From: Salinisphaera japonica YTM-1
GTDB taxonomy: Bacteria; Pseudomonadota; Gammaproteobacteria; Nevskiales; Salinisphaeraceae
Direction: 5' to 3'
Assembly (NCBI RefSeq): GCF_003788585.1
Contig: NZ_AYKG01000005.1
Location: 1-64,000, forward strand
Length of the DNA stretch: 64,000 nucleotides
The position numbers and the translations under genes were made by a program. This document shows positions 3,683 through 17,633 of this stretch, piece after piece; the stretch's first letter is position 1, and each line of letters starts with the position of its first letter. The notes beneath the pieces are model-generated. The model was not told the origin of the DNA. It saw nothing but the letters and a program-made list of their open reading frames with translations, and did not search any database.

Positions 3683-5236
<1,554 letters not shown>

Positions 5237-8200
5237 ATGAACGCATCCGACGCCACCTACGATATCCCCGCGCATAGCGAACCGCAGGGCGTTCGAGAAG
5301 CGAATATTGAAACGGCGTTCATCGAAAAACTGCGCGGCCTGAAGTACACGATCCGGCCCGACATTCGCGACCGGGCCGCGCTTGAAGCCAACTTCCGCGA
5401 AAAGTTCGAAGCCCTGAACCGCGTCACCCTTACCGACGGCGAGTTCGAGCGCCTGCTGGGTGAGATCGTCACGCCGGATGTGTTCACCGCCTCGCGCACC
5501 CTGCGCGAGATCAATGGCTTCACCCGCGACGACGGCACGCCGCTCAACTACACGCTGGTCAACATCAAGGATTGGTGCAAAAACACTTTTGAGGTGGCCA
5601 GCCAGCTACGCATCAATACCGATTACAGCCATCATCGCTACGACGTGATCTTGCTGATCAACGGCGTGCCTGCCGTACAGGTCGAGCTGAAAACGCTTGG
5701 CATCAGCCCGCGGCGGGCCATGCAGCAGATCGTCGATTACAAGAACGACCCCGGCAGCGGCTACACGCGCACGTTGCTGTGCTTCGTGCAGCTATTCATC
5801 GTCAGCAACCAGACCGATACCCGTTACTTCACGAACAACAACAATCGCCACTTCGCCTTCAACGCCGAAGAACGGTTCCTGCCGATCTACCAGTTCGCCG
5901 CCGAAGACAACACCAAGATCACGCATCTGGACGACTTCGCCGATGCCTTCCTGGCCAAATGCACGCTGGGCCGCATGATCAGCCGCTACACGGTGCTGGT
6001 GGCCAGCGAGCAGAAGCTGCTGATGATGCGTCCGTACCAGATCTACGCCGTCAATCGCATCATCCAGTGCATCGAGGAGAACAGCGGCAACGGCTATATC
6101 TGGCACACCACCGGCAGCGGCAAGACGCTGACGTCTTTCAAGGCGTCCACGCTGCTCAAGCACAACCCCGAAATCCACAAGTGCCTGTTTGTCGTCGACC
6201 GCAAGGATCTGGATCGCCAGACCCGCGAGGAATTCAATCGTTTCCAGCCAGGCTCCGTCGAGGCCAACACCAACACCGCCACGCTCGTGCGCCGGCTGCT
6301 CTCGGACGACTACGCCGACAAGGTCATCGTCACCACCATCCAGAAGCTGGGCCTGGCGCTAGACGAACAGAGCAAGCGTAACCAGAGCCGCCAGCAGCGC
6401 GGCCAGCAAACCTACTCGGACCTGCTGGCACCGCTGCGCGACAAGCGCATGGCCATCATCTTCGACGAATGCCACCGCTCGCAGTTTGGCGATACCCACC
6501 AGACCATCAAGGCATTCTTCCCCAGGGCTCAGCTTTTCGGCTTCACCGGCACGCCCATATTCGAAGAGAACGCCGCACAGAAACAACAGTTTCAAACCGG
6601 CGAAAACGAAGACGATGTAAAGCAGCGCAAGACCACCGCAGACATCTTCCAGCAGCAGCTGCACGCCTACACCATCACCCACGCCATCGAGGACGGTAAC
6701 GTCCTGCGCTTCCACGCCGACTATTTCCGCTCGGAGGGCGAATCGGATGACGCAGCCTCGAAGCCCGGCGCCAAACCCGGCGACACGCTGACCCAGCGCG
6801 CCGTCGTCGAGACCATCCTGGACAAGCACGACGCCGCCACTGCCGACCGGCGCTTCAATGCCCTGTTGGCCACATCCAGCATCAACGACGCCATCACCTA
6901 TTACGCGTTGTTCAAGCAGATACAGGCCGAGCGCCAGGCCGAAAATTCCGATCTCGAGCCGCTCAAGATCACCGCTGTCTTCTCACCGCCCGCCGAAGGC
7001 AATGCCGACGTCCGCCAGCTCCAGGAAGACCTGCCCCAGGAAAAAGCCGACAACGCCACCGAGCCGGACCAGAAGAAAGCCGCCCTCAAACAGATCCTGG
7101 ACGACTACAACGCCGCCTATGGCACCAACCACGCCATCAGTGCCTTCGATGATTTCTACAAGGACGTCCAGCAGCGCATCAAGGACCAGCAGCACCCCGA
7201 TACCGACCTGCCGGGCAAGGGGGCGGAGAAGATCGATATCACCATCGTGGTCGACATGCTGCTCACCGGCTTCGACTCCAAATATCTCAACACGCTCTAT
7301 GTCGACAAGAACCTGAAGCATCACAGCCTGATCCAGGCCTTCAGCCGCACCAATCGTGTGTTGAACGCCACTAAGCCCTACGGCCATATCCTCGATTTTC
7401 GTGGCCAGCAGGCCAACGTGGACGAGGCCATCGCCCTGTTTTCGGGGGCCAAGGCCGACACGGCCCGCAAGATCTGGCTGGTGGACAAGGCCCCGCAGGT
7501 CATCGAACAGTTCAAACAGGCCAAGGACGACCTGGACGCGTTTCTCGAATCCCAGGGCCTGGAATCCCGGCCCGAGGCCATCGCCAACCTCAAGGGCGAC
7601 GACGCCCGCGCCCAGTTCATCAATCGCTTCAAGGAAGTCCAGCGCTGCCAGACCCAGCTCGACCAGTACACCGACCTCACCGACGAACAGAAACAAGAGA
7701 TCGAGCACACGCTGCCAAAAGACGATCTAAGACGTTTCCGCGGTGCCTATCTCGAAACCGCCCAGCGCCTGCGCGAACAGCGCGAACAGCCCGGCGGCAC
7801 GGATAACCCCGCCGTCGATCAGCTCGACTTCGAGTTCGTTCTGTTCGCCTCGGCCACCATCGATTACGACTACATCATGGGCCTGATCGCCCGCTTCACC
7901 GATCAGGACCCCAAGAAAGCGACCATGAGCCGCGAACAGCTCATCGGCCTGATCCAGTCCGATGCCAAGTTCATCGACGAACGCGACGAGATCACCGAAT
8001 ACGTCCGCTCACTGGCCACCGACACGCCCCTCGACGAACAGCAGATCCGAGACGGCTATCGCCAGTTCAAGGCCAACAAGCGGGAACACGAACTGGCCGG
8101 TATCGCCCACCAACACGGCCTGTCCGAACAAGCGTTATCCGACTTTGTGGACACCATCCTGCAACGCATGATCTTCGACGGTGAACAACTCAAAGACTTG

Positions 8201-8329
8201 TTCGCTCCGCTCGACCTGGGCTGGCGCGAAAGAATGAAACGCGAACTCGCCCTGATGCATGACCTCGTGCCGCTGCTCAAGAGACGGGCCGACGGGCGGA
8301 CGATTTCGGGTTTGAGTGCTTATGAGTAG
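5237..8329 (+). CDS. hsdR: Type I restriction enzyme, endonuclease/translocase subunit
   Basis: A 1030-residue HsdR of the EcoR124 (type IC) class, usual length about 1040. The PD-(D/E)xK nuclease is at residues 136-152 (D136 in HHRYDVILL, E150 and K152 in VQVELK). The SF2 translocase follows: Walker A TTGSGKT at 291-297, DECH at 410-413, and GFTGTP as motif III. A C-terminal helical part binds HsdM. With HsdM and HsdS it cuts unmethylated DNA far from the recognition site after ATP-driven translocation. The start is ATG 5237 (MNASDATYDIPAHSE); the long open frame upstream lies antisense to argD and is not coding. All catalytic residues look intact. It overlaps hsdS. Confidence 0.95.
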   Translation: MNASDATYDIPAHSEPQGVREANIETAFIEKLRGLKYTIRPDIRDRAALEANFREKFEALNRVTLTDGEFERLLGEIVTPDVFTASRTLREINGFTRDDGTPLNYTLVNIKDWCKNTFEVASQLRINTDYSHHRYDVILLINGVPAVQVELKTLGISPRRAMQQIVDYKNDPGSGYTRTLLCFVQLFIVSNQTDTRYFTNNNNRHFAFNAEERFLPIYQFAAEDNTKITHLDDFADAFLAKCTLGRMISRYTVLVASEQKLLMMRPYQIYAVNRIIQCIEENSGNGYIWHTTGSGKTLTSFKASTLLKHNPEIHKCLFVVDRKDLDRQTREEFNRFQPGSVEANTNTATLVRRLLSDDYADKVIVTTIQKLGLALDEQSKRNQSRQQRGQQTYSDLLAPLRDKRMAIIFDECHRSQFGDTHQTIKAFFPRAQLFGFTGTPIFEENAAQKQQFQTGENEDDVKQRKTTADIFQQQLHAYTITHAIEDGNVLRFHADYFRSEGESDDAASKPGAKPGDTLTQRAVVETILDKHDAATADRRFNALLATSSINDAITYYALFKQIQAERQAENSDLEPLKITAVFSPPAEGNADVRQLQEDLPQEKADNATEPDQKKAALKQILDDYNAAYGTNHAISAFDDFYKDVQQRIKDQQHPDTDLPGKGAEKIDITIVVDMLLTGFDSKYLNTLYVDKNLKHHSLIQAFSRTNRVLNATKPYGHILDFRGQQANVDEAIALFSGAKADTARKIWLVDKAPQVIEQFKQAKDDLDAFLESQGLESRPEAIANLKGDDARAQFINRFKEVQRCQTQLDQYTDLTDEQKQEIEHTLPKDDLRRFRGAYLETAQRLREQREQPGGTDNPAVDQLDFEFVLFASATIDYDYIMGLIARFTDQDPKKATMSREQLIGLIQSDAKFIDERDEITEYVRSLATDTPLDEQQIRDGYRQFKANKREHELAGIAHQHGLSEQALSDFVDTILQRMIFDGEQLKDLFAPLDLGWRERMKRELALMHDLVPLLKRRADGRTISGLSAYE

Positions 8330-9569
8330 TGGGGCGAACGAGATGACTAAGAACGATAAACAACGCTTGCTCGTGCCCAAGCTTCGGTTTCCGGAGTACC
8401 AGAAGTCGCCGTCCTGGACAATTAAATCACTCGGGAATGTCTGTGAAATACTAAATAATCGAAGAGTCCCAATCACAACCAAAGATCGTAAGCCAGGGCC
8501 TTACCCGTACTACGGGGCAAGCGGGATCGTCGATTATGTTGATGAATTCATCTTCGATGAGCGCCTCGTGCTAGTCGGTGAAGACGGGGCAAAATGGGAA
8601 GCTTTTGATAACACTGCCTTTATTGCTGAGGATGAGTTTTGGGTGAACAATCACGCCCATGTTCTAAAGCCTATAGGAGTGATTGACACGCTTCTAGTGA
8701 GCTACCTCGTGAGAAGTGACGTGGGGCCTTATGTCACCGGCGCGGCACCACCGAAACTCACCTTGGCGAAGCTTAAACGAATACCTATCCCACTACCCCC
8801 TACTGAAGCCGAACAACAAAAAATCGCCGACTGCCTGCGCTCGCTGGACGATCTGATCGCGGCCGAGCGGCGCAATCTGGCGGCGCTGCGGGATCACAAG
8901 CAAGGACTGATGCAACAGCTCTTCCCCCGCGAAGGCGAAACCCGCCCGCGTCTTCGATTTCCGGAGTTTCAGGGGGCGGGCGATTGGGAGGTCTGCGCGG
9001 TCGGAAACATTGCCAAGATTTTTAAGGGCAAAGGCGTCGCGAAAGCTGACATCGTCGCCGGCGGATTGACACCATGTATCCGCTATGCAGAGCTTTACAC
9101 CACTTACGGCGAAGTGATCACAGACATAAAATCCTACACCGATGTATCAGTTTCTGCCTTGGTACTGAGTGAAACAGAAGATGTGATCATTCCCGCATCA
9201 GGGGAAACCAAAGCGGACATTGCGACTTGCGCCTGCGTTGCGAGTGCAGGCGTCGCCTTGGGGAGCGATCTTAACGTGCTGCGATCAAAGGTCGATGGCC
9301 GTTTCTTGAGTTACTACTTGAATGGCGTAAAAAGACCTGAGCTTGCCAAGGTCGCGCAAGGCGACACAGTTGCGCATCTATATCAAGCACAAATTTCCCA
9401 ACTCACCGTTGCGATTCCGACGGATGCGAAGGAGCAGCGTGTTATCGCTGATTGCTTATCAACTATCGATGGCCAGATTAGCGTGAAGGTGGCGAAACTG
9501 AACGCGCTGCGCACCCACAAGCACGGTCTGATGCAGCAACTCTTCCCGGCGTCGGATAGCGCCGTGTAA
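8322..9569 (+). CDS. hsdS: Type I restriction enzyme, specificity subunit
   Basis: A 415-residue HsdS with the usual two-fold plan: target recognition domain 1 (about residues 25-165), central conserved helix, domain 2 (about 215-355), distal conserved helix. The two conserved segments repeat each other (QQKIADCLRSLDDLIAA...DHKQGLMQQLFP and QRVIADCLSTIDGQISV...THKHGLMQQLFP). The protein sets the bipartite DNA target, which cannot be read from sequence. The ATG at 8322 overlaps the hsdR stop by eight bases; ATG 8343 (MTKNDKQRLL) is the alternative. The first recognition domain is clearly AT-richer than its surroundings (about 8400-8800), as expected for an exchanged domain. The stop overlaps the next start (TAATG). 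Confidence 0.93.
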   Translation: MSSGANEMTKNDKQRLLVPKLRFPEYQKSPSWTIKSLGNVCEILNNRRVPITTKDRKPGPYPYYGASGIVDYVDEFIFDERLVLVGEDGAKWEAFDNTAFIAEDEFWVNNHAHVLKPIGVIDTLLVSYLVRSDVGPYVTGAAPPKLTLAKLKRIPIPLPPTEAEQQKIADCLRSLDDLIAAERRNLAALRDHKQGLMQQLFPREGETRPRLRFPEFQGAGDWEVCAVGNIAKIFKGKGVAKADIVAGGLTPCIRYAELYTTYGEVITDIKSYTDVSVSALVLSETEDVIIPASGETKADIATCACVASAGVALGSDLNVLRSKVDGRFLSYYLNGVKRPELAKVAQGDTVAHLYQAQISQLTVAIPTDAKEQRVIADCLSTIDGQISVKVAKLNALRTHKHGLMQQLFPASDSAV

Positions 9570-10087
9570 TGAACCCACGAATCATTATCATCGCCGGGCC
9601 GAACGGGGCAGGGAAAACCACGTTCGCCCGAACCTTTCTACCTGATGACGCGCGCCTGCCGCGTTTCATCAATGCCGATCTGATCGCGACGGGGTTGTCA
9701 CCGTTTGCACCGGAGACGGCGGCGGTCAAGGCAGGGCGCTTGATGTTGCAGGAGATAGACGATGCGGTGGCCCATGGGGAGAGCTTTGCATTTGAAACCA
9801 CGTTGGCCGGCATGGGCTACCGAAAACACATTCGGCGATGGCGCGCCTTGGGCTACCACGTCAGCCTGTTCTTTCTGAGCCTGCCCGACGTAGAAACCGC
9901 TATTGCTCGCGTGGCCACCCGCGTCCGTCAGGGCGGTCACGATATTCCCGAAAACGTGATTCGTCGTCGCTTTACCGGCGGGCAGCGCCATTTCAATACG
10001 GTGTACAAGAACGAGGTGGATGACTGGGCCTTGTATGATAACGGCGGTGATGCCGCCACCCTGCTGGACTGGAGTGAGACACCATGA
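9569..10087 (+). CDS. Zeta-toxin-like P-loop kinase
   Basis: A 172-residue AAA/zeta-toxin-family protein. Walker A GPNGAGKTT sits at residues 10-18, followed by FINADLIATGLSPFAPE, FAFETTLAG and the basic segment VRQGGHDIPENVIRRRF, which is typical of proteobacterial zeta-like kinases. Zeta toxins phosphorylate UDP-amino sugars; many members of this short subgroup are uncharacterised, so toxicity here is inference. The ATG overlaps the hsdS stop by one base and the stop overlaps the next ATG (ATGA), so the gene is translationally coupled inside the RM operon. It splits hsdS from hsdM, which is unusual for a type I locus. Confidence 0.8.
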   Translation: MNPRIIIIAGPNGAGKTTFARTFLPDDARLPRFINADLIATGLSPFAPETAAVKAGRLMLQEIDDAVAHGESFAFETTLAGMGYRKHIRRWRALGYHVSLFFLSLPDVETAIARVATRVRQGGHDIPENVIRRRFTGGQRHFNTVYKNEVDDWALYDNGGDAATLLDWSETP

Positions 10088-10311
10088 AATCGCGAGATAT
10101 TTCCGAGGCACGCAACCCCGATCTGCGCGCGTCCGAGGCCGCGCTGCGCCGCGCGGCGCAACTGGCGCGTCAAACCGCGATCCAGACCGATACGGATCTG
10201 GTCGTGGTGCGTAACGGCCGCACGATTCGGATACCGGCCCATACCCTGCGTTACGAGGCGAAGGGTGATGGAAGCTCGGCTTCAATGCTCATAACGGCCA
10301 GAAAAGATTGA
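10084..10311 (+). CDS. Small partner of the zeta-like kinase, possible antitoxin
   Basis: A 75-residue protein (MKSRDISEARNPDLRASEAA) with an alpha-helical, Ala/Arg-rich first half and a beta-like segment DLVVVRNGRTIRIPAHTLR. It starts within the kinase stop codon (ATGA overlap), so the two are made together. Small genes of this look follow zeta-like kinases in many Proteobacteria to my knowledge, and a role as antitoxin or accessory subunit is inferred from that position. It does not resemble the classic epsilon antitoxin, which precedes its toxin. The stop falls two bases before a 19-base copy of a MITE terminus (10309-10327). Confidence 0.55.
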   Translation: MKSRDISEARNPDLRASEAALRRAAQLARQTAIQTDTDLVVVRNGRTIRIPAHTLRYEAKGDGSSASMLITARKD

Positions 10312-10327
10312 AACGGCAACAGGCCCT
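10309..10327. repeat. Solo 19-bp copy of a MITE terminal repeat
   Basis: The bases TGAAACGGCAACAGGCCCT are identical to 19 of the 27 bases of the terminal inverted repeats that bound the element at 42488-42773. Only this piece is present; no second end is visible nearby. It overlaps the stop codon of the small partner gene by three bases. Confidence 0.7.
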
Positions 10328-10665
10328 TGCCACAAGCCCGGCTTGACGCAACAATTTTTCGCCACACCGTAAGGCCGCGACGCGAATAGCTGTTTGATCT
10401 GGGGGCCGAACAGGCTGGTTCGCGCCTAACAAGCCTGTCTGAAAGCGCTGAACCGAGCGGTGAGGCAACGGCCGAGGAATCCTCGGTCGTTCAAATGAAA
10501 GACAGCCGCGCGGCGTGCGGCACGCGCTGACAGCTACGACCCGCACTTTGGCGTGACGCAGTTGGACGATACGCAAACACGAGAGCATGAATCTCAAGCC
10601 GCCGATGCCGCCGATGAGGCCGAGCTGGCCGCGCTGGAACATCAGGTCAAGCAACGCAAGAAACC
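10328..10665 (+). pseudogene. Remnant of an accessory gene upstream of hsdM
   Basis: No complete gene is visible here. From a stop near 10494 the plus frame is open to a TGA at 10667-10669, which overlaps the hsdM start (ATGA). It ends in a plausible protein tail, AADAADEAELAALEHQVKQR plus KKP. The first usable start is GTG 10553, giving 38 residues. The coupled stop suggests the tail of a former operon gene that lost its 5' part. RhuM- or Fic-like accessory genes often sit in type I loci and would fit, but the tail is too short to assign. The left part (10328-10490) shows no coding signal. Confidence 0.4.
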
Positions 10666-12312
10666 ATGACAAAAAACGACCAACAAAAACTCGGCAAAAT
10701 CCTCTGGGATATCGCGGACGATCTGCGCGGGTCGATGAACGCCGATGATTTTCGCGATTACATGCTGGCGTTTCTGTTCCTGCGCTATCTCTCGGATAAC
10801 TACGAGGCTGCCGCGCAGAAAGAGCTGGGTAGCGATTACCCGGACCCGGATGCGATAGACAACGGCGGTCGCACGCCGTTATCGGTGTGGTACGACGCGA
10901 ATCCCGAGGATATCGAGGCGTTCGAGAAGCAAATGCGCCGCAAGGCGCACTATGTGATCGAGCCCCGGCATCTGTGGGCGAATATTGCTTATCTCGCTCG
11001 CAAGCACGATGACGAGCTGCTCGGAACCCTGCAGGCCGGGTTTAAATACATCGAGAACCAGTCGTTCGATAGCACGTTTGCCGGGCTGTTCTCCGAGATC
11101 AACCTGGGCTCCGACAAGCTCGGCAAGACCCACGCCGATCGTAACGCCAAGCTCTGCACCATCATTCAGCGCATCGCCGAAGGGCTGGCCGATTTCTCGA
11201 CCGATGCCGATACTCTGGGTGATGCCTATGAGTATCTGCTCGATCAGTTCGCGGCCGGCTCGGGCAAGAAGGCGGGTGAGTTCTATACGCCGCAGCGGAT
11301 TTCCGACATCTTGTCGGCGATCGTCACGCTCGATAGCCAGGCACCGGCGTCCGGCCCACGGCAGAACCTGGCCAGCGTTTATGATTTTGCCTGCGGTTCG
11401 GGCTCGTTGTTGTTGAATGTGCGTCGGCGCGTGGTCGATGCCGGGGGCACGATCGGCCAGATTTCGGGCCAGGAATACAACGTGACCACCTACAACCTCG
11501 CGCGCATGAACATGTTGCTGCACGGGGTGAAGGACACCGAGTTCGAGATCTACCACGGCGATACGCTCAAGAACGAGTGGGACACGCTGCGCGAGACCAA
11601 CCCGGCGAAAAAACCCCGCTTCGATGCCGTGGTGGCCAATCCGCCGTTCAGCTATCGCTGGACACCGGGCGATGACACCAGCGAGGACATGCGTTTCAAG
11701 AACCACGGCGTGGCGCCGAAGTCCGCCGCGGACTTCGCGTTCCTGCTGCACGGGTTCCATTACCTGAAAGACGACGGCGTGATGGCGATCATCCTGCCGC
11801 ACGGCGTGTTGTTCCGTGGCGGGGCCGAGGCGCGCATTCGCCGCAAGCTGCTAGAAGACGGGCATATCGATACCGTGATCGGCCTGCCGGCGAACCTGTT
11901 CTATTCGACGGGTATCCCGGTCTGCATTCTGGTGTTGAAAAAGTGCAAGCAGTCAGACGATGTGCTGTTCATCAACGCCGAAAAACACTTCGAGAAAGGC
12001 AAGCGACAGAACGCGCTGAACGAATCGCATATCACCGAGATCATCGATACCTACAAGGCGCGCCCGGATCAGGTCGAGCGTTATGCCCGACGGGTCGATC
12101 TGGACGAGATCGAGCGCAACGACTGGAACTTGAACATCTCGCGCTATGTGAGCACGGCCGAGCCAGAACCCGAGATTGATCTGGCCCGCGTGCATCAGGA
12201 TCTGGTCTCGATCGAGACCGATATCGCAGACGCGGCGAAGCGGCACAACGAGTTTCTCGAAGAACTCGGGCTGCCACCGCTTCCGGGGTATGCGAACACA
12301 AAAACGTCATGA
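10666..12312 (+). CDS. hsdM: Type I DNA N6-adenine methyltransferase, modification subunit
   Basis: A 548-residue HsdM of the type IC class. The N-terminal HsdM_N helical domain (residues 1-150) is followed by the approach motif GEFYTPQRISDIL (204-217), SAM motif FACGSG (241-246) and catalytic motif NPPF (325-328), then a long helical C-terminus. With HsdS it methylates adenine in both half-sites and protects host DNA. All key residues are present, so the complete RM system should be active. It starts at ATG 10666, overlapping the stop of a short upstream frame. The gene order R-S-x-x-M differs from the common M-S-R or R-M-S order. Confidence 0.95.
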   Translation: MTKNDQQKLGKILWDIADDLRGSMNADDFRDYMLAFLFLRYLSDNYEAAAQKELGSDYPDPDAIDNGGRTPLSVWYDANPEDIEAFEKQMRRKAHYVIEPRHLWANIAYLARKHDDELLGTLQAGFKYIENQSFDSTFAGLFSEINLGSDKLGKTHADRNAKLCTIIQRIAEGLADFSTDADTLGDAYEYLLDQFAAGSGKKAGEFYTPQRISDILSAIVTLDSQAPASGPRQNLASVYDFACGSGSLLLNVRRRVVDAGGTIGQISGQEYNVTTYNLARMNMLLHGVKDTEFEIYHGDTLKNEWDTLRETNPAKKPRFDAVVANPPFSYRWTPGDDTSEDMRFKNHGVAPKSAADFAFLLHGFHYLKDDGVMAIILPHGVLFRGGAEARIRRKLLEDGHIDTVIGLPANLFYSTGIPVCILVLKKCKQSDDVLFINAEKHFEKGKRQNALNESHITEIIDTYKARPDQVERYARRVDLDEIERNDWNLNISRYVSTAEPEPEIDLARVHQDLVSIETDIADAAKRHNEFLEELGLPPLPGYANTKTS

Positions 12313-12413
12313 TGCGAGCGTCGTAACGGCGATCCGTTCTGGGGTGTGTCGCTTTTTGAGTTGGCAATCAGTCGCCCGACGGGGGCGAAAAGACAAGAAA
12401 GAGGGGGCACACC
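12313..12413 (+). promoter_or_regulatory. Leader of the amino-sugar operon
   Basis: About 100 bases separate hsdM from the sugar transporter gene. AAGAGGGGG lies just before the ATG and is a strong ribosome binding site. A GC-rich dyad, CGCCCGACGGGGGCG, is seen at about 12372-12386. I cannot place a convincing sigma-70 promoter, so the operon may have a regulated promoter or depend on readthrough. Confidence 0.35.
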
Positions 12414-13790
12414 ATGAGCGACGTGGACATGCCACGGCATAACGCGCTACCCGCCACCGCCTGGCTGGCCATCGGCGCGGCCGCACTCGGCGGCATGCTC
12501 TACGGCTACGACATCGGCATCATCGCCGGGGCGCTGGTGTTCATGAAGCCGGCGTTGTCGTTATCGGCGTCTGAGATGTCGCTGATCGTCGCGGCCGTGC
12601 TGGGCGGTGGGTCGCTTGCCACGTTGATCGGCGGGCCGGCCGCTGATCGCTTTGGTCGCAAGGCGACGCTCACAGTGGCTGGCCTGGTGTTCATCGTTGG
12701 CGTGGTGGTTACGGCCATAGCCGGTGGCTATAGCGGTGCGCTGGTCGGGCGTTTGATCCAGGGGATCGGCGTGGGGCTGATCACGATCGTGGTGCCGTTG
12801 TACATGGTGGAGGTCATGCCGCCGGCGGTGCGCGGGCGTAGTGTGACGCTGTTTCAGCTTTGCCTCACGTTCGGCATTCTGGCGGGTTATCTCGTGGGGT
12901 ATCTGTTCAACCACAGCGGGGATTGGCGGGCCATGTTCGCCACCGCGCTAATCCCCGCGGCGGCTTTTGTGCTTCTGGGGCTGGCCCTACCGAAATCACC
13001 GCGCTGGCTGTTCAAGCAGGGCAGGACCGATGAGGCGCGCGCGGTGTTGGGGCGTACCCACGGCCCGGCCGAAGCCGAAACGACGTTTGCCGAGCTGGCC
13101 GATCAGACCGACGCAGACGCCGCGGCCGGGCGCTGGTCGTTGTTGCCGGCGCCGGGGTATCGCAAGGCGTTTTTCCTGGCTTTGGCGATCGGCTTGCTCA
13201 ATCAGTTGACCGGCATCAATACGTTGCTGCAATTCAATACCGTGATTCTTGATCAGTCCGGTCTGGGCTCCGGTGCGGCCGCGGTGCTGGGGAGCGTGAC
13301 GGTTGGTTTGACCAATTTCGTGGTCACGATCATCGGGCTGGTGTTGATTGATCGCGTCGGGCGGCGGCCATTGCTGATCATCGGTACGGCAGGCTCGGCC
13401 ATCGCGCTTGTATTCATGGCCTTGGTGCATGTGCTGACCACGGCGTCGCCGCTACAGGGCTATGCCACGCTGGCCGGGTTGATCGGCTTTGTGGTCTTTT
13501 TTGCTATCGGCCCGGGTATCGTGGTGTGGCTGGCTATTTCTGAAGTGTTGCCGCTGGCGATCCGCGCCAAGGGGATGGCGGTGGCGCTGTTCGCCAATTC
13601 CTTGATGTCGGCCGCACTTGCGGCCGTGTTCATGGATATCGTGGCATTGGCCGGCTATGCCGGGGCCTTCGCGTTATTGGCGGTATCTGTTCTGTTGTAT
13701 CTGCTGGTGGCGATTTTCCCGTTGCCCGAGACCAAGGGCCGCAAGCTTGAAGAAATCGAACGCCATTTTCTGGGTGGTGAACATGGCTGA
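12414..13790 (+). CDS. MFS sugar porter, probably N-acetylglucosamine uptake
   Basis: A 458-residue twelve-helix transporter of the sugar porter family (Pfam Sugar_tr). Signs are GGMLYGYDIGIIAGAL in TM1, PAADRFGRKATL after TM2, GRLIQGIGVGL, ESPRWLF-like LPKSPRWLFKQGR at the end of TM6, LLNQLTGINTLL in TM7, DRVGRRPLL after TM8 and PETKGRKLEEIE at the C-terminus. It should carry a sugar with H+ across the inner membrane. GlcNAc is inferred from the three downstream genes (kinase, deaminase, deacetylase). The gene overlaps the kinase by eight bases. Confidence 0.88.
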   Translation: MSDVDMPRHNALPATAWLAIGAAALGGMLYGYDIGIIAGALVFMKPALSLSASEMSLIVAAVLGGGSLATLIGGPAADRFGRKATLTVAGLVFIVGVVVTAIAGGYSGALVGRLIQGIGVGLITIVVPLYMVEVMPPAVRGRSVTLFQLCLTFGILAGYLVGYLFNHSGDWRAMFATALIPAAAFVLLGLALPKSPRWLFKQGRTDEARAVLGRTHGPAEAETTFAELADQTDADAAAGRWSLLPAPGYRKAFFLALAIGLLNQLTGINTLLQFNTVILDQSGLGSGAAAVLGSVTVGLTNFVVTIIGLVLIDRVGRRPLLIIGTAGSAIALVFMALVHVLTTASPLQGYATLAGLIGFVVFFAIGPGIVVWLAISEVLPLAIRAKGMAVALFANSLMSAALAAVFMDIVALAGYAGAFALLAVSVLLYLLVAIFPLPETKGRKLEEIERHFLGGEHG

Positions 13791-16938: not shown

Positions 16939-16958
16939 GGCATATGCTGGCATATGCC
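16939..16958. promoter_or_regulatory. Probable VapB operator, two GCATATGC palindromes
   Basis: GGCATATGCTGGCATATGCC holds two copies of the perfect palindrome GCATATGC with centres 11 bases apart, about one helical turn. It overlaps the expected transcription start of vapBC. VapB/AbrB-fold antitoxins bind such short palindromes to repress their own operon. Confidence 0.55.
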
Positions 16959-16977
16959 ATGTATTGCAGAGGTGTCG

Positions 16978-17217
16978 ATGGAAACCGAACGTCATGCTCG
17001 TTTGTTCAAGAACGGCCGAAGTCAGGCGCTGCGTATTCCGAAGGAGTTCGAGCTGCCCGGCAACGAGGCGATTATCCGAAAAGAGGGCAACAGGTTGATC
17101 ATTGAGCCGGTCGCTGCCAAGCCCAATCTTCTGGATATGTTGGCCACGCTGTCGCCGATTGAAGAAACGCTGCCGATCGCAGAAGACATGCCGCCGGACG
17201 AGGATGTTCAGCTTTGA
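16978..17217 (+). CDS. vapB: Antitoxin VapB (AbrB/MazE fold)
   Basis: A 79-residue antitoxin starting at ATG 16978, with AGAGGTG just upstream. The N-terminal half (ARLFKNGRSQALRIPKEFEL, GNEAIIRKEGNRLIIEP) is a swapped-hairpin AbrB DNA-binding domain. The acidic tail (IEETLPIAEDMPPDEDVQL) is the usual toxin-binding part. Longer in-frame starts upstream lie over the operator and are unlikely. It overlaps vapC by four bases. Confidence 0.88.
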   Translation: METERHARLFKNGRSQALRIPKEFELPGNEAIIRKEGNRLIIEPVAAKPNLLDMLATLSPIEETLPIAEDMPPDEDVQL

Positions 17218-17633
17218 CGGCGACGGGCTTTGTCTATCTGTTGGATACGAACATCATTTCCGACATGGTTCGCCGTCCAGCAGGCCGCGCTGCCAAGGCT
17301 CTGGCGCGCGTCGACGTTGCGCAGGTATGCACCAGCATTATTGTGGTGAGCGAAATACGTTACGGCGTCGCGCGCCGCGGCTCTCAAAAACTCACCGCTC
17401 AGGTCGACGCTGTTCTGTCTGTCTTGCCGGCGCTGTCGCTCGAGTCTCCCGCTGACCGGCATTACGGCGATATCCGCGCTGAATTGGCGGGCCAGGGGCA
17501 GCCGATCGGCGGCAACGATCTTCTGATCGCCGCTCAGGCACGCGCCCTCGGGTTGACCGTGGTCACCGATAACATCCGTGAATTCGAGCGTGTTCGCGGG
17601 CTTCGAACAGACAACTGGCTAGACCAAGCATAG
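17214..17633 (+). CDS. vapC: Toxin VapC, PIN-domain ribonuclease
   Basis: A 139-residue PIN-domain protein beginning with TTG at 17214 inside the vapB stop codon. The four acidic metal ligands are visible: D11 (YLLDTNIISD), E47 (VVSEIRYG), D102 (GGNDLLIA) and D119 (VVTDN). VapC toxins of this type cleave initiator tRNA or rRNA; which one cannot be read here. The module looks complete and active and stands just downstream of the amino-sugar operon. Confidence 0.9.
   Translation: MTATGFVYLLDTNIISDMVRRPAGRAAKALARVDVAQVCTSIIVVSEIRYGVARRGSQKLTAQVDAVLSVLPALSLESPADRHYGDIRAELAGQGQPIGGNDLLIAAQARALGLTVVTDNIREFERVRGLRTDNWLDQA

What the first reader, a model, noticed from the sequence alone, without database searches (positions are those of the whole stretch)
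9569..10311. Zeta-like kinase and small partner embedded between hsdS and hsdM
A type I RM operon is split by two translationally coupled genes: a P-loop zeta-type kinase and a 75-residue protein. All junctions (hsdR/hsdS, hsdS/kinase, kinase/partner) overlap, so the kinase is made together with the specificity subunit. A toxic kinase tied to HsdS/HsdM synthesis could act as a guard that kills or arrests the cell when the RM system is lost or shut off by a phage. Seen: motifs and overlaps. Inferred: toxicity and the guard role.
Basis: partly seen in the sequence, partly recalled or inferred. Interest (0 to 1): 0.62.

Follow-up and report, generated by a model that had tools for sequence, protein, structure and literature searches.

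The report
Kinase pair riding in restriction operons
A small toxin-like kinase and its tiny partner sit inside a bacterial DNA-restriction operon, and close relatives of the pair turn up inside several other kinds of restriction operon, which suggests that it travels with and may back up this form of virus defence; whether it is toxic or defensive has not been tested.

Summary
hsdR and hsdS are followed by a 172-aa Zeta_toxin-family kinase (9569-10087) and a 75-aa partner (10084-10311), with overlaps of 8, 1 and 4 nt. There is no overlap with hsdM: 354 nt lie between, holding pieces of a decayed rhuM gene.

In six homologous RM loci the hsdS-hsdM interval is a cargo slot: AAA_13 ATPase, RhuM, DUF3800, a transposase-type gene, or AbrB/PIN beside a kinase scrap.

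The pair recurs in RM operons. Of 60 close kinases sampled, 23 have RM-type genes within 1.4 kb on the same strand (8 type I, 13 type III-like, 2 other; 20 if weak cases are dropped), against 0 of 30 VapC loci and 0 of 23 distant zeta loci. The window's kinase groups with six others, all RM-linked, types I and III mixed. Synechocystis plasmid pSYSG carries the pair in a type I operon.

Best reading: a self-contained toxin-antitoxin-like module at home in RM operons (addiction and/or second-line defence). A guard restrained by Hsd proteins is weakened mainly by one genome that kept the pair and lost the RM genes. Toxicity, substrate and phage protection are untested. Toxin-like genes in RM operons are known; I saw no report of this zeta pair as recurrent cargo.

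The parts
5237..8329 (+). hsdR (type I restriction subunit, EcoR124_C domain); start codon inferred
   Evidence: TIGR00348 378.6 bits; EcoR124_C, HSDR_N; PADLOC REase_I 1111 bits
8322..9569 (+). hsdS (specificity subunit); ATG overlaps hsdR by 8 nt
   Evidence: (PF01420, two stretches)
9569..10087 (+). zeta-type kinase, 172 aa; ATG overlaps the hsdS stop by 1 nt (TAATG)
   Evidence: PF06414; predicted fold; conserved K16, D37, E76, R134
10084..10311 (+). small partner, 75 aa; overlaps the kinase by 4 nt (ATGA)
   Evidence: predicted helix plus beta-hairpin, pLDDT 72
10390..10509 (+). rhuM remnant, equivalent to RhuM residues 33-72
   Evidence: above all 300 shuffles with RhuM of L128, L129 and L131, not found with L127; RhuM_L131 E=0.002
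10568..10669 (+). rhuM remnant, equivalent to RhuM residues 302-333, with its stop still overlapping the hsdM ATG (ATGA)
   Evidence: 0 of 300 shuffles with each of four RhuM queries; same ATGA junction in L128
10666..12312 (+). hsdM (modification subunit)
   Evidence: TIGR00497 369 bits; N6_Mtase, HsdM_N

Best explanation
The pair is a self-contained toxin-antitoxin-like module at home inside restriction-modification operons. Shown: a zeta-family kinase and a small downstream gene recur in type I operons directly after hsdS, and in type III-like operons between mod and res or between DUF4391 and mod. Inferred: the kinase, when free, slows or kills the cell by phosphorylating a small substrate (UDP-GlcNAc in characterised zeta toxins; recalled, and stated in PMC3874152, passage); the partner restrains it. 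Lying in contact with hsdS or mod, the pair is made together with the modification/specificity part. This would penalise loss of the whole operon (addiction) and could give a second line of defence if a phage shuts down the operon or host expression. In this window it sits in the cargo slot that in relatives holds an AAA_13 ATPase and RhuM, and rhuM beside it has decayed.
For: Zeta_toxin family; model (pLDDT 87.9) matches epsilon/zeta 1gvn (TM 0.80 over the query, VIA Z 16.0, rmsd 2.5, 168 aligned) and PezT 2p5t (Z 15.2); K16, D37, E76 and R134 unchanged in 62 of 62 rows. RM-type genes within 1.4 kb same strand in 23 of 60 sampled kinases vs 0 of 30 VapC loci and 0 of 23 distant zeta loci; within the same 369 genomes 16 of 32 vs 0 of 30. 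Seven-row set around the window's kinase, all RM-linked, mixed types. Synechocystis pSYSG type I operon carries the pair. In L071 the partner ORF is joined to a HicB-like antitoxin domain (PF15919, 29.2 bits, cut-off 27). Kinase under purifying selection (L062 vs L187 dN/dS about 0.05 at dS 1.7). Pair open in L062, whose genome shows no other HsdM or HsdR match, and in L186 beside a mod remnant.
Against: No direct evidence of toxicity or of neutralisation. The partner matches no known antitoxin family and no solved fold. Fold matches to polynucleotide kinase are as good or better (Z 17.2), so the substrate is open. 37 of 60 sampled loci show no RM-type gene within 1.4 kb; 12 of these 37 have less than 1.4 kb of contig on one side. 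Kinases in RM loci also decay: a scrap in L127, an in-frame stop in L071, a transposase-bearing insert in L198, so it is dispensable at times.
Confidence: 0.48

Rival explanations
1. PrrC-like guard: the HsdS/HsdM complex holds the kinase inactive, and phage inhibition or loss of the RM enzyme releases it.
For: Embedded directly behind hsdS, as in several other type I loci; the same slot in relatives holds an AAA_13 ATPase (PF13166; its link to PrrC is recalled); EcoprrI-PrrC is a proven precedent (PMC3874165 and PMC12707154, passages). L187, with hsdR interrupted but hsdS open and a related hsdM on another contig, is compatible with it.
Against: Open pair in L062 with no hsdS match and no other HsdM or HsdR match in that genome; no RM-type gene within 1.4 kb in 37 of 60 loci; it sits behind unlike proteins (HsdS, Mod, DUF4391), so one specific contact is unlikely.
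Confidence: 0.23
2. Non-toxic accessory kinase: a nucleotide, polynucleotide or nucleic-acid-end kinase that assists restriction, repairs ends, or counters a phage modification; the partner is a subunit or regulator.
For: Best VIA-align rows are bacterial polynucleotide kinases (Z 17.2, rmsd 2.8-2.9, 156 aligned), then zeta (16.0), PezT (15.2) and PSTK (14.7); profile search finds Pnkp1 weakly (E 7.6e-5); neighbours act on nucleic acids.
Against: By sequence Zeta_toxin is the best Pfam model (E 1.3e-12 vs AAA_33 6.3e-8); the alignment to zeta covers more of the model (168 residues, rmsd 2.5); an overlapping small partner and frequent occurrence outside RM loci are typical of toxin-antitoxin pairs.
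Confidence: 0.17
3. Mere passenger: RM operons with cargo slots collect mobile toxin-antitoxin pairs by insertion, with no functional tie to restriction.
For: The slot holds unrelated cargo (AAA_13, RhuM, DUF3800, Y1 transposase, AbrB/PIN); pSYSG stacks several toxin-like modules in one type I operon; kinase decays in some RM loci.
Against: 0 of 30 VapC loci lie beside RM genes where 16 of 32 kinases do, in the same 369 genomes; near-contact behind hsdS or mod repeats across RM types; the set around the window's kinase is wholly RM-linked.
Confidence: 0.12

Closest known systems
epsilon-zeta / PezAT toxin-antitoxin systems
   Same: Zeta_toxin Pfam family, P-loop kinase fold; conserved K16, D37, E76 and arginines
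   Different: Much shorter (172 aa vs 240-272 in the PDB chains listed); small partner lies downstream and matches no known antitoxin; placed inside RM operons. Substrate untested.
EcoprrI-PrrC (type I RM with embedded anticodon nuclease)
   Same: Toxin-like gene embedded in a type I hsd operon; relatives of this very operon carry an AAA_13 ATPase in the slot (PrrC link of AAA_13 recalled)
   Different: A kinase with its own small partner, not an anticodon nuclease; no evidence that Hsd subunits restrain it.
RM operons with HEPN, RhuM, Fic/Doc, Sir2 and other toxin-like genes (PMC3710099, PMC3506569; passages seen)
   Same: Same concept: toxin-like genes inserted in type I and III RM operons, with repeated replacement of one by another; PMC3710099 reports PrrC-like plus RhuM plus RM neighbourhoods
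   Different: 'zeta' has 0 occurrences in the main text of either; here the cargo is a zeta kinase with a dedicated partner.
Synechocystis sp. PCC 6803 pSYSG defence island (PMC4963859; passages seen)
   Same: Zeta kinase 58% identical, with a 59-aa partner, in a type I operon behind hsdS and a nucleotidyltransferase
   Different: The paper lists sll8001-ssl8005 (probably including this pair; my mapping) only as genes 'related to TA modules' that did not meet its criteria; the pair is not discussed in the passages I saw.

Membership tests
Zeta toxin family (PF06414) | Profile score above the curated cut-off | tested here: met
   48.0 bits vs 22.3
Zeta toxin family (PF06414) | Zeta/PezT kinase fold | tested here: met
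   Model pLDDT 87.9; 1gvn TM 0.80 over the query, Z 16.0; 2p5t Z 15.2. Other P-loop kinases score similarly.
Zeta toxin family (PF06414) | Catalytic residues (Walker lysine, base aspartate, E/T of the second motif, arginines; roles recalled) | tested here: met
   K16, D37, E76, R134 in 62 of 62; T78 in 60 of 62; R114 in 61 of 62; mapping to zeta residues by motif only
Zeta toxin family (PF06414) | UDP-N-acetylglucosamine phosphorylation, toxicity | not testable with these tools
   needs bench work
epsilon-zeta / PezAT module | Antitoxin gene upstream of the kinase (recalled order) | tested here: not met
   Small partner is downstream; upstream gene is hsdS
epsilon-zeta / PezAT module | Partner related to epsilon or PezA | tested here: inconclusive
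   No family or clear fold match; model only pLDDT 72
Type II toxin-antitoxin pair in general | Two short overlapping co-directional genes that recur together | tested here: met
   4-nt overlap in 34 of 64 picked partners and 19 of 24 RM-linked ones, with a picking rule that favoured it; profile 58 of 64
Type II toxin-antitoxin pair in general | Partner neutralises toxin | not testable with these tools
   only hint: partner joined to a HicB-like domain in L071
Type I RM system (EcoR124-like) | hsdR, hsdS and hsdM all present and matching most of their models | tested here: met
PrrC-type RM-linked guard | Embedded in a type I operon | tested here: met
PrrC-type RM-linked guard | AAA_13 (PrrC-type, recalled) ATPase with anticodon nuclease domain | tested here: not met
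   the kinase matches Zeta_toxin and AAA_33 best; AAA_13 is not in its list at E<=0.1
PrrC-type RM-linked guard | Held inactive by the RM enzyme | not testable with these tools
   indirect evidence against from L062 and L186

The most novel reading that the evidence does not exclude
A clade of short zeta-type kinases with a dedicated small partner is a general, RM-dedicated second-line effector that moves between type I, type III and perhaps type IIG operons, placed so that it is made with the modification/specificity gene; it fires when RM expression or modification fails during infection, and its substrate may be a nucleotide or nucleic-acid end rather than UDP-GlcNAc.
Probability: 0.2. Interest if true: 0.75.

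Novelty: new variant of a known kind. Interest (0 to 1): 0.52.

Why it matters
How restriction systems are backed up when phages block them is known well only for PrrC (recalled). A toxin-like pair that recurs behind hsdS and mod in unlike RM operons, including one in the model cyanobacterium Synechocystis PCC 6803, makes the old idea of 'immunity coupled to suicide' testable for a new enzyme class. It also shows that the space beside hsdS is a cargo slot worth mining for unknown defence genes.

Tried and rejected
Mostly rejected: that the pair is phage-borne. Only 4 of 50,697 phage records match, all under 32% identity; but four IMG/VR viral contigs carry relatives at 50-57% identity, so it is not wholly absent from viruses. 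Rejected: that an insertion uniquely splits this operon. Uninformative: promoter scan (1 site against 2.6 expected by shuffling) and base composition. For the partner, no solved structure by sequence (best E 1) and no clear fold match (best VIA Z 2.4; Foldseek best E 1.1). phmmer with the single kinase found mainly short P-loop matches, Pnkp1 at E 0.03. The one genome-contig scan went to generic patterns and gave 7 loci. Of 525 plasmid records with a match I opened 9 (H1, H5-H7, H9, H10, H13, H25, H27); one, pSYSG, is an RM operon. The PADLOC scan of 105 control neighbours lists 25 of 71 families, none named type I or III RM; three members match mad2, a methyltransferase model, so it is only a partial check. 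Profiles of my own RM sets run on all control ORFs found one HsdR piece, on the opposite strand (L125).

Searches show an hsdM of this family (77%) at the start of another contig of that genome, so the operon may run across a contig break; only the hsdR insert stands. For this reason I moved the odds slightly from the self-contained and passenger readings (0.50 to 0.48; 0.13 to 0.12) to the guard (0.20 to 0.23).

Bias to state: the type III, SNF and IIG query sequences came from kinase loci, so the controls are strictest for type I (8 of 60 vs 0 of 49, Fisher p 0.008). L199 and L215 were found with their own neighbour as query and L064 shows only DUF4391; without these three the count is 20 of 60 (vs 0 of 30, p 1.0e-4). 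VapC control loci are the window's own and 29 of the best relatives, with at most 1.5 kb on each side. The distant zeta set is the 19 loci plus L015-L018. The sample of 60 is confined to the window's own phylum. Seventeen of the 60 have under 1.4 kb on one side, 12 of them without RM. The 60 include broken copies. Dropped rows: 4 kinases with internal stops of 68 from the tree, which still holds partial ones (such as L198, L207, L083, L208); 2 more under 150 aa.
Full report
OBSERVATION. Searches confirm the layout: hsdR (start near 5237, stop 8329), hsdS (ATG 8322, stop 9569), kinase (9569-10087), partner (10084-10311), hsdM (10666-12312). HsdR, HsdS and HsdM are recognised. Overlaps of 8, 1 and 4 nt are read from the sequence. 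The partner is not coupled to hsdM.

THE GAP BEFORE hsdM. The 354 nt at 10312-10665 hold two pieces related to RhuM: residues 33-72 at 10390-10509 and residues 302-333 at 10568-10663. The second piece beats all 300 shuffles with each of four RhuM queries, the first with three of them (with RhuM of L127 the second-best hit is a different stretch and is not significant). The stop of the second piece still overlaps the hsdM start by four bases, the same ATGA junction that rhuM has with hsdM in L128. So rhuM once stood here and decayed.

A CARGO SLOT. A search with HsdM in 85 genomes of the order found six other full matches at 72-86% identity, all in hsdR-hsdS-slot-hsdM order (L126-L131), and a truncated one (L135). 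None of the six has hsdS and hsdM adjoining: L126 AAA_13 alone; L127 AAA_13, RhuM, a frameshifted kinase scrap and an AbrB/PIN pair; L128 and L129 AAA_13 and RhuM; L130 a Y1-transposase-type gene and RhuM; L131 DUF3800 and RhuM. Pfam labels: AAA_13 tested in L126, L127, L129; RhuM in L128, L130, L131; DUF3800, Y1_Tnp, MazE/PIN where named; the rest by similarity. The L127 scrap beats all 300 shuffles against three kinases. None of the six carries the intact pair. HsdS is only 31-34% identical in five of them, and matched in pieces in L130, while HsdR and HsdM are 68-86%, as expected of exchanged specificity subunits.

THE PAIR ELSEWHERE. The kinase is in 26 of 85 order genomes at E<=0.001, but only four loci (own, G053, G370, G029) reach E<=1e-25. 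The pair in G053 (L062, kinase 72%, partner 66%) lies between an HsdR N-terminal piece (residues 3-134), a short stretch like the AAA_13 C-terminus (0 of 300 shuffles with the L126 and L129 proteins, not significant with L127 and L128) and an HsdM N-terminal piece (residues 1-54). bring the loci at E<=1e-25 to 60. Of these 60, 23 have RM-type genes within 1.4 kb on the same strand: type I in 8 (window, L062, L071, L082, L187, L201, L202, L206); type III-like (Mod, Res, DUF4391 or its helicase) in 13 (L064-L067, L186, L188-L190, L192, L194, L195, L198, L210); a SNF2/ResIII protein in L199; a type IIG-like methylase in L215. Pfam supports Mod (N6_N4_Mtase), Res (ResIII), DUF4391, RE_endonuc and Eco57I/MmeI for representatives. 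L185 has hsdM-hsdS 2.7 kb upstream and is not counted. Controls: 0 of 30 VapC loci (the window's own and 29 relatives) and 0 of 23 distant zeta loci (19, 4); one distant locus, L125, has an HsdR piece on the opposite strand. Within the same 369 genomes the kinase count is 16 of 32 against 0 of 30 (p 2.7e-6); for all 60, p is 1.9e-5 against VapC and 8.8e-4 against 19 distant loci; type I alone 0.008. These treat loci as independent, which they are not; the tree needs at least 12 changes between RM-linked and not, four forced by well-supported branches. L199, L215 and L064 are the weakest members; without them the count is 20 of 60.

ORDER. In type I loci the kinase follows hsdS with gaps of -1 or -4 in window, L071, L082, L187, L206, L202 (hsdS cut by the contig start) and L201 (ORF before it a 167-codon piece); it follows mod within -8 to +3 in six of seven Mod-kinase-Res loci, the seventh, L198, being interrupted; kinase and partner overlap by 4 nt in 19 of 24 RM-linked loci, with a picking rule that favoured this. 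Order types (partners): R-S-kin-par-M (window), M-S-kin-par-R (L071, L201, L206 and, with a nucleotidyltransferase, pSYSG), Mod-kin-par-Res (seven loci), helicase-DUF4391-kin-par-Mod-(RhuM)-Res (L065, L066; L067 lacks the helicase end at its contig end; RhuM in L065 and L067). RhuM thus accompanies the pair in both RM types.

NAMED EXAMPLE. Synechocystis PCC 6803 plasmid pSYSG: hsdM (not in the gene table, found by tblastn), DUF433, DUF5615, hsdS, nucleotidyltransferase, zeta kinase (58%), 59-aa partner, DUF4433, macro domain, hsdR across the record start. Kopfmann et al. 2016 (PMC4963859, passages) call this a potential defence island and list neighbouring genes as related to TA modules.

TREE. 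64 of 68 kinases, those without an internal stop (short search): the window's kinase is in a seven-row set on one side of a supported branch (SH-aLRT 95) with L062, L185, L187 (type I), L188, L198 (type III) and L186 (mod remnant). A second set of longer kinases (97) holds further type I cases (L082, L201, L202, L206). A weakly supported set (72) of 15 holds plasmid, Bacteroidota, viral-contig and other copies; none of its rows has an RM match within 1.4 kb on the same strand.

FOLD AND CHEMISTRY. The kinase model (pLDDT 87.9) matches bacterial polynucleotide kinase (Z 17.2, 156 aligned), zeta (Z 16.0, 168 aligned), PezT (Z 15.2), PSTK (14.7) and AvrRxo1 (13.9). Sequence favours zeta. K16, D37, E76 and R134 are unchanged in 62 of 62 rows. 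Substrate stays open. The partner model is a long helix and a beta-hairpin (pLDDT 72) with no clear relative. In L071 the partner ORF runs on into a HicB-like domain, a hint of antitoxin nature, though the kinase there has an in-frame stop.

MECHANISM. The pair looks self-contained. In L062 it is open although hsdS is gone, hsdR and hsdM are scraps, and the genome (94% complete) gives no other HsdM or HsdR match at E<=0.001. In L186 it is open beside a 57-residue mod remnant, in a genome with RM genes elsewhere. In L187 only hsdR is interrupted, by an insert with an IS4/5-type transposase; hsdS is open and an hsdM of the family starts another contig, so it says little about Hsd restraint. In 37 of 60 loci no RM gene was seen nearby. 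That argues for the partner, not HsdS/HsdM, as the restraint. Caveat: the relics may be recent or silent. Decay also goes the other way (scrap in L127, stop in L071, transposase insert in L198).

LITERATURE. In the listings of searches I saw no title or abstract that reports zeta kinases as recurrent RM cargo; most listed papers were not opened. Passages were seen of PMC4963859, PMC3710099, PMC12707154, PMC3874152, PMC3874165 and PMC3506569. The general idea, toxin genes within type I and III RM operons, is in PMC3506569 and PMC3710099. The library holds open-licence papers only, so absence is weak evidence.

VERDICT. Real, recurrent and ordered; a new kind of cargo in a known kind of arrangement. 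The suicide-guard reading is plausible in outline but not shown, and its strict form is weakened.

Noticed in passing
window 16954-17633: A second toxin-antitoxin pair, MazE/AbrB-type antitoxin and PIN-domain (VapC-like) toxin, about 4.6 kb downstream of hsdM.
   Followed up: partly
window 10390-10669: Decayed rhuM gene, its stop still overlapping the hsdM start.
   Followed up: yes
L126-L131, between hsdS and hsdM: Variable cargo slot: AAA_13 ATPase, RhuM, DUF3800, Y1 transposase-type gene, AbrB/PIN pair.
   Followed up: partly
L146 (pSYSG) 4697-13309: One type I operon stacks DUF433/DUF5615, nucleotidyltransferase, zeta pair and a DUF4433/macro-domain (DarTG-like, recalled) pair.
   Followed up: partly
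L071:5249-5647:-: Partner-like N-terminus joined to a HicB-like antitoxin domain.
   Followed up: partly
L065, L067 between Mod and Res: RhuM also sits inside type III-like operons that carry the kinase pair.
   Followed up: no
L187 (hsdR) and L198 (kinase): Inserts of about 0.87 and 0.82 kb with IS4/5-type transposase domains, one in hsdR, one in the kinase gene.
   Followed up: partly
L246, L252 (G539:C32): The genome of L186 also holds an RM locus of the window's own family (HsdR 67%, HsdM 71%), about 4.5 kb between them; contents of its slot not read.
   Followed up: no
L090 9947-10209: A kinase C-terminal scrap with a partner-like stretch and no RM match in 20 kb.
   Followed up: no
L081:2286-4676:+: A TOTE-type primase/helicase protein lies downstream of a kinase pair; L080 and L078 carry proteins of the same similarity cluster.
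   Followed up: no
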